From Avibacterium paragallinarum (GTDB lineage: Bacteria > Pseudomonadota > Gammaproteobacteria > Enterobacterales > Pasteurellaceae), in contig NZ_UGHK01000002.1 in the NCBI RefSeq assembly GCF_900450705.1, positions 1,368,970-1,432,969 on the forward strand: 64,000 nt of DNA. The letters are read 5' to 3'. The position numbers and the translations under genes are program-made. Position 1 is the first letter of the stretch; the number at the start of each line of letters is the position of its first letter. This document shows, piece after piece, positions 59,986 to 63,814 of the stretch. The notes below the pieces were generated by a model that saw only the letters and a program-made list of their open reading frames with translations, did no database searches and had not been told where the DNA came from.

Positions 59986-61158
59986 TTATTGCTGAAATTC
60001 CTGTAACAAAGTGAGAAAAGCGTCCACTTCTTGCTCGCTCATATCCGCCGTTAAAGAAAGGCGGATTCGCGATGTGCCTTGTGGCACAGTTGGCGGACGA
60101 ATCGGCAAGCAATAATAGCCCTGTTGTTGCAAGGCTTGGGCGGTGGCAACGGTTTTTTGATTATCACCGATAATATAAGGGATAATACCGCTTTCACTCA
60201 GAATCGATTGGGCTAAATTCTCGCGAAAAAAGCACCGCACTTTTTCGCTTATCTGATGTAAATGTTGGCGACGCGTAGCAAAGTGTGGGAGTTTTTCAAA
60301 CAGAAATGCCGTCCACGCAACGCATATCGGTGGCAAAGCGGTAGAAAAAATCAGCGGTCGCATTTTGTTGATTAAGTAATCTTTTAGCAGTTGATCGCAC
60401 ACCACATACGCTCCCATTGAAGCGAGGGCTTTGCCAAAGGTGCCAACTAAAAAATCGATCTCTTGCACACAACCTTGCTGTTCCGCAATGCCTAATCCCG
60501 TGTCGCCATAAGCCCCGATGGCGTGGGCCTCGTCCACATAAAGCATCACATTGCCAAAGCGATGTTTTAACGCTACAAGCTGGCGTAAATCTACCACATC
60601 ACCGTCCATACTGAAAATGCTTTCGGTAACGATGATCATTCGTTGGTAATGGGCTTGATGTTTTGTTAATAAGGTTTCTAAGTGATTGAAATCATTATGC
60701 CGATAGCGAACAAAATCCGCCTCGCTCAAACGAATGCCGTCAATGATACTGGCGTGAACCAGTTTATCCGCCACGATTAGGGTTTTCTTATTTGCCACCG
60801 CAGGCAAAATGCCGATGTTGGCGTGATAGCCACTATTAAACAGCAAGCACGCCTCACGTCCAAATCGGCTTGCCATTAGGCTTTCGAGCTGTTCGTAAAT
60901 GGCGAAAGATCCCGTGAGTAACCTTGAGGAAGAGGAAGTAAAGTGCGGTAGGTTTTCGCCATAGTTTTTTAAAAATTCGCTTTTCAATGCGTCATCATTG
61001 GCAAGACCTAAATAATCATTAGAGGACATATTGAGCATTGTACGTCCGTCTTTGACGATCATTTTGCCTTGATGATCTAACTGGGGAAGCTGACGAAACT
61101 GCCCAATCGCCTTGAGTTCTGCCAGTGTTTGTGCAAAATCAGCGAGATGATTATTCAT
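59986..61158 (-). CDS. bioF: 8-amino-7-oxononanoate synthase
   Basis: 390 aa from ATG 61158 ([20 protein letters not shown]), which overlaps the bioA stop; a longer in-frame reading is only bioA sequence. [38 protein letters not shown] and PLP-Lys in [13 protein letters not shown] (about 238). PLP-dependent decarboxylating condensation of pimeloyl-ACP and alanine. Confidence 0.95.
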
Positions 61159-62440
61159 TGTAAACCTCTTTGAGTACTGCCAATAAGCCTTGCGTGAGCT
61201 GGCTGAGCTGGGTTGCCGAAATAATAAAAGGAGGCATAATATACACCAAATGCCCGAAAGGGCGTAGCCAAATGCCTTTTTCGACAAATTTTGGCTGTAA
61301 AATGTTCAAATTCACAGGTTCTTTCATTTCTAACACGCCAATCGCCCCCAGAACACGCACCTCTTTCACCGCCTTGAAGGATTTTGCAGGGGCAAGTTCC
61401 ATTTTTAATTGTTGCTCAATGCGTTGTACATTGCCTTGCCAATCACTTTCTAACAAAAGATCAATGGACGCACAAGCAATGGCACAAGCCAGTGGATTAC
61501 CCATAAAAGTTGGTCCGTGCATAAAACATTTTGCTTCGCCGTTACAAATGGTTTCTGCTATGTGAGCGGTGGTAATAGTGGCAGAAAGGGTTAAATAACC
61601 GCCTGTGAGGGCTTTGCCTAAGCACATAATATCAGGCTTGATATTGGTGTATTCGGTGGCAAATAATTTCCCTGTTCGCCCGAAGCCCGTGGCGATTTCA
61701 TCAAAAATCAGCAATACGCCATATTCATCACACAAGGTGCGGGCTTTTTCCAAATAAGTCGGCGAATAAAAATACATTCCGCCTGCCCCTTGCACAATGG
61801 GCTCTAAAATTAAGGCAGCAATTTCACCGCTCTTTTCGGCGAGTAAATCCTTTAATGGCTGAATATCTGCCTCTTGCCATTGTCCGTCAAAAGGGGTTTT
61901 AGGCTGTGGGAGGAAATACTGCACGGGCAAGCCTTTCGCAAATAGGCTGTGCATACCCGTGATCGGATCGCACACCGACATTGCGTGCCAAGTGTCGCCG
62001 TGGTAGCCCGAACGAATGGTGGCAAACTTGTAACGCTCGCTTTCCCCTTTAGCTTGCTGATATTGCACCGCCATTTTCATCGCCACTTCTACCGCCACAG
62101 AACCGCTATCGGCGAAGAAAATTTTGTCTAGCCCTTGAGGTAATAATTTCACCAAGCGAGAAGCCAATTCACCAGCGGGATCGTGGGTAAAACCGCCAAA
62201 CATAATATGGCTCATTTTATCCAGTTGATCCTTCGCCGCTTGGTTCAATTTCGGGTGATTATAACCGTGTAACGCCGCCCACCAAGAAGACATTCCGTCA
62301 ATCAGCCACTTGCCATTTTTCAACGTGATTTCCACCCCGTCCGCACGCTCCACCGCAAACATCGGTGCATTACTATTCAGACATGAATAAGGGTGCCAGA
62401 TGTGGTTTTTGTCGATATTGAGGAGGGTTTGTTCTTGCAT
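61151..62440 (-). CDS. bioA: Adenosylmethionine-8-amino-7-oxononanoate transaminase
   Basis: 429 aa. NHIWHPYSC at the start, [48 protein letters not shown]-Lys in [16 protein letters not shown] (about 273). Uses SAM as amino donor. First gene of the bio operon; its promoter must lie in 62441-62510, next to the IS110 flank. Confidence 0.95.
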
Positions 62441-62508: not shown

Positions 62509-62577
62509 GTAGGGACGGACCTACGTGTCCGTCCGTAATAATCATTAATTTTTTGGGTGCACACATAGGTGCACCCC
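62509..62577. repeat. Palindromic repeat, copy A
   Basis: GTAGGGACGGACCTACGTGT, then CCGTCCGTAATAATCATTA and GGGTGCACACATAGGTGCAC (inner inverted repeat GGGTGCAC/GTGCACCC). Related to copy B at 63744, on the other side of the IS110 element. Confidence 0.65.
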
Positions 62578-62616
62578 TTGTATATTAAAATTAATATAAA
62601 ATAGCAACAAAACCCC

Positions 62617-62679
62617 GTTATCTGCATCTCGCGTCCGCCCCAGGCAACAAACCGAGTTGTAGCAATGAGAGCAGATAAC
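62617..62679 (+). ncRNA. Candidate IS110 bridge RNA stem-loop
   Basis: GTTATCTGC (62617-62625) and GCAGATAAC (62671-62679) pair perfectly; TCTC/GAGA extend the stem inward with one bulged A, and CAAC-AAACCGA-GTTG forms an inner hairpin. It lies 57 bp upstream of the transposase, where IS110 elements encode the bridge RNA that pairs with target and donor. Confidence 0.55.
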
Positions 62680-62735
62680 ATTTCACCAAAAAACCGAACA
62701 GTTGCCAGACTTAAACCCGAATGCAAGGCAGGTTA

Positions 62736-63683
62736 ATGATGAATGAACAAACTTATTGTGGTATTGATGTTGCTAAACGTCATTTCGTCATTGGGCTTTC
62801 TACCCAAAAACGAACAAAAACCGAAACCAACAACCCGAAAGGGATTGCACATACCATTGAGTATTTACGTCGTTTCAGTGTGGACTTAATTGTCCTTGAA
62901 AGCACCGGTAGGCTTGAACTCCCATTAGCTAAAGCACTCCACCGCACAGGCTTTCGTGTGGTGATTGCCAACCCGCGACAAACCAATCAGTTTGCGATGT
63001 CGCAGTCACTAGCAAAAACCGACAATAAAGACGCCAAAATGTTGGCTTTTTACGCCCAAATGCTCGCAATGCGTGATAATGTAGCACAGCAGCTTTACAT
63101 ACCACCCACTCCCGAGCAGGAACAGCTTGAAGCCCTTGTTTCACGCCGTAATCAGCTTGTTGAAATGCGTTTTGCGGAGAAAAACCGCCTTGAACAAGTT
63201 CATTCCACACAAGTATTCAGTGTTGAACAGCATATCGACTATCTCAGCCTGCGTATTGATGAGCTGGATAGGGAAATCGAACAGCATCTCAAACATTTTG
63301 ACGATACAATAAAAAAGTTTAAAGACATCAAAGGGTTGGGTACACAAACAATAGCCGTTTTGATGTCAATGTTGCCTGAGTTAGGTCAATACACACATAA
63401 ACAAATCGCTTCACTTGTTGGTGTTGCACCCCATCCTAAAGAAAGTGGCAACACCAAATGGAAAAGCCGCTGTTCAGGTGGTCGCAAAGCCGTACGAAAT
63501 GCACTGTATATGGCAACATTTGTTTGTGTGCGTTTTGAGCCTAAACTCAAACAATTTTACGAACGCTTACGTGCTAATGGTAAGGCGTTCAAAGTGGCGA
63601 TTAACGCCTGTATGCGTAAGCTTCTCACCATTTTAAATGCGATTGTCCGCGATGACTCGCAATGGGACGCTCACGCACTTTAA
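62736..63683 (+). CDS. IS110-family DEDD transposase
   Basis: 315 aa from ATG 62736 or 62739 (MNEQTYCGIDVAKRHFVIGL), AGGCAGG upstream. RuvC-like DEDD: Asp in GIDVAK, Glu in VLESTGRLELP, Asp pair in KTDNKDAKML. The C-terminal Transposase_20 domain contains IKGLGTQTIAVLMSMLPELG and the Ser-bearing KSRCSGGRKAVRNALYMATF. Complete. RNA-guided recombinase in recent work on this family. Confidence 0.9.
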   Translation: MMNEQTYCGIDVAKRHFVIGLSTQKRTKTETNNPKGIAHTIEYLRRFSVDLIVLESTGRLELPLAKALHRTGFRVVIANPRQTNQFAMSQSLAKTDNKDAKMLAFYAQMLAMRDNVAQQLYIPPTPEQEQLEALVSRRNQLVEMRFAEKNRLEQVHSTQVFSVEQHIDYLSLRIDELDREIEQHLKHFDDTIKKFKDIKGLGTQTIAVLMSMLPELGQYTHKQIASLVGVAPHPKESGNTKWKSRCSGGRKAVRNALYMATFVCVRFEPKLKQFYERLRANGKAFKVAINACMRKLLTILNAIVRDDSQWDAHAL

Positions 63684-63743
63684 TTAACGAATTTGTATTT
63701 TTGCTTTTTAGCGGAATACAGTTGCTATACCTATCATTTTATC

Positions 63744-63814
63744 GTAGGGACGAACCAGTGTGTCCGTCCGTATATCATTATCCGCTTTACGGGCAAATAC
63801 ATAGGTCGCCCTAC
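63744..63814. repeat. Palindromic repeat, copy B
   Basis: GTAGGGACGAACCAGTGTGT, CCGTCCGTATATCATTAT and ACGGGCAAATACATAGGTCG, then CCCTAC; the ends GTAGGG/CCCTAC are inverted. Shares most of its first 35 bases with copy A. 63684-63743 and 63815-63940 hold nothing else apart from a possible promoter. Confidence 0.65.

What the first reader, a model, noticed from the sequence alone, without database searches (positions are those of the whole stretch)
62509..63814. IS110 element with a bridge-RNA-like stem, lodged between two palindromic repeats
A 9-bp perfect stem extended by TCTC/GAGA with an internal hairpin sits just upstream of a complete DEDD transposase. The element lies between two related GTAGGGACG palindromes, suggesting that such repeats are its chosen target. 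If so, the loop sequences should pair with bases in the repeats or element ends.
Basis: partly seen in the sequence, partly recalled or inferred. Interest (0 to 1): 0.5.

Follow-up and report, generated by a model that had tools for sequence, protein, structure and literature searches.

The report
RNA-guided jumping gene targeting palindromic repeats
This is a bacterial jumping gene that carries its own guide RNA and uses it to insert at the ends of short palindromic repeats; its kind is already known, but here the target-reading part of the guide differs between otherwise almost identical copies in one genome.

Summary
The finding is real and the interpretation largely right, with one correction. 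The window holds one of 16 near-full copies of an IS110 element in an Avibacterium-group genome. The element runs from CT at 62577 to CT at 63726 and encodes a 315-aa protein of the RNA-guided IS110 transposase family. The leader before the gene has the layout of a bridge RNA. Its stem shows changes on both sides at 8 of 11 pairs, and four short guides match left target, right target and both donor ends. All belong to an array of GTAG-headed repeats that lacks the element in three relatives. Of 17 recovered left sites, 12 match a guide allele at 8 or more of 10 positions, against 0.45% of CT sites in the window. Across seven lineages guide and target change together (2 of 5040 pairings). It is a new member of the IS621-like, REP-targeting kind. 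Unusual: the only variable bases of the leader fall in the left target guide or one base beyond, giving four guide alleles in one genome.

The parts
62577..63726 (+). IS110-family element, from left core CT (62577-62578) to right core CT (63725-63726)
   Evidence: Ends read from alignment of own-genome copies; single CT in unoccupied counterparts of other copies
62555..62576 (-). REP palindrome that is the left target (LT) of this copy; ends at the core CT
   Evidence: Sequence; same position in other copies
62509..62537 (+).
   Evidence: orthologous array without the element in L092-L094
63744..63772 (+).
63790..63814 (-). Second half of that next unit (CGGGCAAATACATAGGTCGCCCTAC)
62605..62735 (+). 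Predicted bridge RNA; ends are a guess from position
   Evidence: Position between left end and gene, folding and alignment
62617..62679 (+). Target-binding stem-loop; arms 62617-62630 and 62667-62679
   Evidence: 99.1% of cells paired, 8 of 11 pairs with changes on both sides, covariation score reached by 0 of 500 shuffles
62633..62642 (+). Left target guide (GTCCGCCC-CA in this copy); 62633, 62635 and 62641 vary between copies, and so does 62643 one base beyond
62657..62662 (+). Right target guide TTGTAG, complementary to CTACAA
   Evidence: 14 of 19 right flanks begin CTAC, against about 4% of CT sites in the window
62698..62706 (+). Left donor guide ACAGTTGCC, matching the right end ACAGTTG-CT at 63718-63726
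   Evidence: Sequence and conservation
62721..62727 (+). Right donor guide ATGCAAG, complementary to CTTGTAT at the left end (62577-62583) with one wobble
   Evidence: Complementary in 10 of 10 aligned sequences
62736..63683 (+). DEDD transposase gene, 315 aa
   Evidence: alignment to IS621 (8wt6) E=1.9e-34

Best explanation
A bridge-RNA-guided IS110 insertion sequence that spreads mostly by inserting at the CTAC end of GTAG-headed REP palindromes. The element leaves as a circle joining right end, CT and left end (inferred). The RNA from the left end pairs through its donor loop with that junction and through its target loop with the REP arm (left guide) and the CTAC tag (right guide). The transposase then exchanges strands at the shared CT, so an insertion ends up flanked by CT on both sides. 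Shown here by sequence: ends, core, guide-to-target and guide-to-donor matches, stem covariation, unoccupied sites, and co-change of guide and target across lineages. Inferred: transcription of the RNA, the circle, pairing in the cell and catalysis.
For: 16 near-full copies with common ends and CT at each end that could be read. Family NF033542 'IS110 family RNA-guided transposase', 225.9 bits against a cut-off of 140; alignable with IS621 and ISCro4. Unoccupied sites with one CT: orthologous REP end in G024 (L112 against L004); paralogous repeats L048 against L002 and L035 against L046. Left guide alleles match 12 of 17 left targets at 8 or more of 10; 0.45% of 6430 CT sites do; 0 of 5000 shuffled guide sets reach the total. 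14 of 19 right flanks begin CTAC. Across seven lineages, one of them Moraxella lacunata, 2 of 5040 pairings of guides with targets score as high, the true one among them. Stem: 8 of 11 pairs with changes on both sides.
Against: 5 of 17 left sites show no such hairpin (L005, L008, L013, L014, L015b), and three of these match the guides poorly (L013 6, L014 6, L015b 4 of 10). The right flank of the window copy reads CTAT, not CTAC, and the orthologous arrays give no exact empty site there. With wobbles allowed, 5 of 5040 pairings reach the true one and at least one exceeds it. In one search one of five measures, the number of further pair types, is not above shuffles (350 of 500). A promoter rebuilt at the circle junction could not be told from the integrated ends by a simple score. 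No RNA data; no Rfam match up to E=1.
Confidence: 0.92

Rival explanations
1. The stem is a leader structure that controls transposase expression, not a guide, and the element recognises repeats by protein contacts alone.
For: The structure lies just upstream of the start codon, and the right donor guide ends 8 bases before it. [quoted passage not shown]
Against: Guide letters track the target across seven lineages while the transposases of six of them are 57-80% identical to the window's; shuffled guides fail. The two roles do not exclude each other.
Confidence: 0.05
2. Concerning the guide alleles only: variation between copies is neutral drift plus gene conversion, with no effect on targeting.
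For: The guide of a copy does not match its own site better than other guides do (16 own guide-site pairs p=0.26; 20 pairs of the genus p=0.08). Copies recombine (78 of 190 pairs of variable columns show four combinations). IS621 shows no guide variation in 15 copies. The 11-base segment used for the smallest P value was defined after seeing the variable bases.
Against: Three of the four variable columns of the 149-base leader lie in the 10-base guide (P=0.0009) and the fourth is the next base. The two main allele types match two kinds of repeat end found in this genome, GTCCGCCCCTAC and ATACGCCCCTAC.
Confidence: 0.45
3. The palindrome at the left flank is part of the element rather than its target.
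For: It is next to the left end in 12 of 17 cases.
Against: Its sequence differs between copies and 5 of 17 left flanks lack it; repeats without the element exist in the same place of a relative (L112) and in the orthologous arrays.
Confidence: 0.02

Closest known systems
IS621 (IS110 family, Escherichia coli)
   Same: DEDD transposase alignable over about 310 residues; guide-bearing leader upstream of the gene; left end CTTGTAT; 13 of 15 copies read here follow ATCAGGC-CT and carry the guide TATCGGGCCT; insertion into REPs and the CT core are published (PMC11208160, passages)
   Different: Left guide here reads Avibacterium repeat arms (GTCCGCCC or ATACGCCC); four guide alleles in one genome, whereas 15 of 15 IS621 copies share one
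ISPpu9/ISPpu10, ISPsy8, ISPa11 (REP-targeting insertion sequences)
   Same: Specific insertion into REP sequences (PMC1525189, abstract)
   Different: Other hosts and repeats; not compared by sequence here
ISEc11/ISXne4 (natural reprogramming of seekRNA, IS1111 group)
   Same: Related elements whose guide and target changed together (PMC11187229, passages)
   Different: Those transposases are 72% identical; here alleles differ among about 99% identical copies in one genome
GTAG-headed REPs of Haemophilus parasuis and H. influenzae
   Same: GTAG head and short palindrome in bacteria of the same family (PMC2817692, passages with Table 1)
   Different: Stem sequence differs; no REP-associated tyrosine transposase was recognised in this genome

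Membership tests
IS110 family | DEDD transposase with PF01548 and PF02371 | tested here: met
   79.6 and 64.8 bits against cut-offs 29 and 21.3; NF033542 225.9 bits against 140
IS110 group (not IS1111) | Long non-coding left end, short right end, no 11-13 bp subterminal inverted repeats | tested here: met
   157 bases between left core and start codon, 41 between stop and right core; repeat search with minimum 12 found no inverted pair joining the ends; 11-bp repeats were not searched
Bridge-RNA element | Loops with left/right target and donor guides matching target and donor | tested here: met
Bridge-RNA element | RNA expressed, bound by transposase, needed for recombination | not testable with these tools
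   No RNA or biochemical data
Bridge-RNA element | Promoter rebuilt at the circle junction | tested here: inconclusive
   TTGCTT with TATAAT at 17 bp is the best hit in 2 of 8 lineages; over the 8, junction scores 7-9 and integrated scores 7-10
REP repeat (target) | GTAG head, imperfect palindrome, several copies per genome | tested here: met
   RTNYGCCCCTAC 11 times in this genome and 2-54 times in six relatives; control pattern 0-1 per genome; hairpins at 12 of 17 sites
REP repeat (target) | Associated REP tyrosine transposase (RAYT) in the genome | tested here: inconclusive
   5 Y1_Tnp hits; the two proteins scanned are IS200/IS605 type, one with a weak REP_Tyr_transpos score of 29 against a cut-off of 80

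The most novel reading that the evidence does not exclude
Within one genome the element keeps a pool of copies that are almost identical except for the target guide, so that the pool reads several repeat classes at once. Guides act on other copies in trans and are passed around by recombination. The guide would then be under diversifying selection: a natural, evolving library of bridge RNA targets.
Probability: 0.28. Interest if true: 0.62.

Novelty: new member of a known kind. Interest (0 to 1): 0.42.

Why it matters
It gives a multi-copy natural example in the Pasteurellaceae of a bridge-RNA element aimed at local REP repeats, with guide alleles that differ among nearly identical copies. That makes a question testable: how do RNA-guided insertion sequences change their targets in nature, step by step. 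By sequence, a single base, C or T at 62641, would favour GTCCGCCC-CT or CGTCCGCC-CT ends, and both kinds of end are occupied.

Tried and rejected
Tried without profit: Rfam (no match up to E=1). Protein search in samples of 394 order and 369 class genomes: at E 1e-70 only the window's own genome. Phages: no match at E 1e-40. Plasmids: 1112 records, each below 60% identity. Pattern scan of viral contigs for other guide alleles: 0. An E. coli IS110 of 40.7% identity: its hits were mixed with an adjoining IS3 element and its copy number could not be read, so I turned to IS621. Flank of L013 as an empty-site query: only related gene copies elsewhere, no clean empty site. Promoter at the junction: inconclusive. 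Papers searched for Pasteurellaceae, IS110 and palindromes: two unrelated. PMC3733652 on GTAG-tagged repeats does not mention Haemophilus, Avibacterium, IS110 or GTAGGGGCG in its main text.

Rejected: that each copy was placed by its own present guide (p 0.26 and 0.08; not proven false, but not supported). Rejected: that the two GTAGGGACG repeats are the junctions.

Rows dropped before counts: L009 and L017 gave no left target, because the sequence upstream of their nested IS is not a left end. L014 was missed and is included. L015a and L015b share one right flank, counted once. L063 (contig end, 5 bases of left target) was left out. Relatives L066, L067, L070, L072 and L073 (fragments or 36% identical) were not used; L088 and L090 are the fragments of A. 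gallinarum. Of 23 near-full IS621 matches listed, 15 with distinct flanks were read over 1267 bases; this did not reach the right end of IS621.

Full report
What is there. The window is part of a 2.86-Mb, three-contig genome. Searching the genome with the region gave 25 matches: 16 near-full copies (L001-L016), six fragments (L017-L022) and three short pieces of flank (L023-L025). Aligning the copies fixes the ends: left CT|TGTATATTAAAATTAATATAAAATAGC, right GGAATACAGTTG|CT. In the window the element is 62577-63726. It has one gene, 62736-63683, with both IS110 domains and the NCBIfam label 'IS110 family RNA-guided transposase'. It aligns with the solved transposases IS621 and ISCro4.

Insertion sites. 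Each left and right end that could be read is followed or preceded by CT; L009 and L017 have no readable left end. An unoccupied counterpart with a single CT was found for L004 in a relative (L112: GGTCTGTCC-CT-ACATTG against GGTCTGCCC-CT-ACACTA), and unoccupied paralogous repeats exist for L002 and for the fragment L019/L046. Of 17 left flanks recovered in this genome, 12 end in a hairpin of 6 or more net pairs, against 2.3% of CT positions in the window. Many of these are repeats like GTAGGGGCGGACCTATGTGTCCGCCC read on the other strand, so that the element sits at the CTAC (GTAG) end; L006 sits at the other arm, and L010, L011 and L015a sit in a second class ending ATACGCCC or GTACGCCC. IS621 looks alike: 13 of the 15 copies read here follow ATCAGGC and then CT, one follows ATCGGGT and one lies in IS621 itself. 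Only left flanks of IS621 were read. That IS621 inserts into REPs is published (Choi 2003, seen as a reference in PMC11208160).

The window copy. In L093 and L094, loci of two relatives, the same intergenic place holds four such units in tandem without the element, and L092, cut by a contig end, shows one. The right flank of this copy does not match these arrays base for base, so its right junction rests on the other copies.

The RNA. In an alignment with nine relatives (eight sequences of Pasteurellaceae and one of Moraxella lacunata; A1), 8 of the 11 stem pairs show changes on both sides and 99.1% of cells are paired; 0 of 500 shuffles reach the covariation score, while the count of further pair types is no higher than in shuffles. 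One side of the loop carries the left target guide (62633-62642), the other side the right target guide TTGTAG (62657-62662). Downstream lie a left donor guide ACAGTTGCC (62698-62706) and a right donor guide ATGCAAG (62721-62727), which match the two ends of the element. This order is as described for bridge RNAs (PMC11208160, passages read).

Guide against target. With the four guide alleles of this genome, 12 of 17 left targets match at 8 or more of 10 positions and 14 of 17 at 7 or more; 0.45% of 6430 CT positions in the window reach 8. No shuffled guide set of 5000 reached the total of 134. Fourteen of 19 right flanks start CTAC, against about 4%. Misses are L013 and L014 (6 of 10) and L015b (4 of 10). 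Across seven lineages with one guide each, the true pairing scores 51.2, and 2 of all 5040 pairings reach this (mean 38.7); with wobbles allowed 5 of 5040 do and the best is a wrong one. Five of the seven lineages contribute a single site.

Guide variation within the genome. Among 16 copies, 20 of about 1140 columns vary. Four are 62633, 62635, 62641 and 62643, and these are the only variable columns of the 149 aligned bases before the gene. Three lie inside the 10-base guide (P 0.0005 for the element, 0.0009 for the leader), the fourth one base beyond. For the 11-base segment that spans all four, chosen after seeing them, P is 2e-5; for any 11-base segment of the element it is 0.009. The alleles are CGTCCGCCCCAGG, CGTCCGCCCCAAG, CGTCCGCCCTAGG and CATACGCCCCAGG; two more occur in relatives, L058 and L087. 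GTCCGCCCCTAC and ATACGCCCCTAC ends both occur as free repeats in this genome. The guide of a copy is not a clearly better match to its own site than guides of other copies (p 0.26 for 16 pairs, 0.08 for 20). Copies recombine: 78 of 190 pairs of variable columns show four combinations. Guides may therefore work in trans, which bridge RNAs can do in plasmid tests (PMC11208160), or be replaced after insertion. As a yardstick, 15 IS621 copies share one guide, but they differ at only three single bases and one 3-base gap in 1267 bases, so this control is weak.

What is known. RNA-guided IS110 elements, REP targets and co-change of guides and targets between relatives are published (PMC11208160 and PMC11187229, passages; PMC1525189, abstract). 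No paper in the library holds both Avibacterium and IS110. Searches on bridge RNA with IS110, seekRNA and REPIN/RAYT/IS110 (12 of 29 listed) showed no title on guide differences among copies of one genome. Only open-licence papers were searched, and the main bridge RNA paper was read in passages, so this does not prove absence.

Verdict. An ordinary kind of element in a well-shown new instance, with one unusual property, guide alleles within a genome, that deserves a test. On checking, I lowered two odds slightly: the fourth variable base lies just outside the guide (novel case 0.30 to 0.28), and the wobble control is weaker than first written (best explanation 0.93 to 0.92).

Noticed in passing
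L009, L011, L012, L014, L016, L017, left end of the element: Another insertion sequence is nested in the AT-rich left end of six copies, in three registers. In L011, L012 and L016 both sides are seen with 8-bp repeats (TTAAAATT or TAAAATTA); in L014 the repeat is imperfect. The one scanned, in L012, is of the IS1595 family.
   Followed up: partly
L015, L018: One copy is preceded by part of the transposase gene of another copy, at a GTAGG-CT site with a poor guide match. An IS621 copy in E. coli (L153) likewise follows IS621 sequence.
   Followed up: no
L093, L094 (intergenic place beside the gene at window 61151-62440): Tandem array of paired GTAG repeats, about 170 bp per unit, whose unit number differs from the window and among relatives.
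   Followed up: no
window 62910: The window copy and L002 have A where 14 other copies have G, changing glycine 59 to arginine, four residues after glutamate 55, which aligns with the glutamate of IS621; effect unknown.
   Followed up: no
G026 (genus relative): 54 RTNYGCCCCTAC repeat ends but no match to this transposase at E 1e-30, so the repeats do not depend on the element.
   Followed up: no
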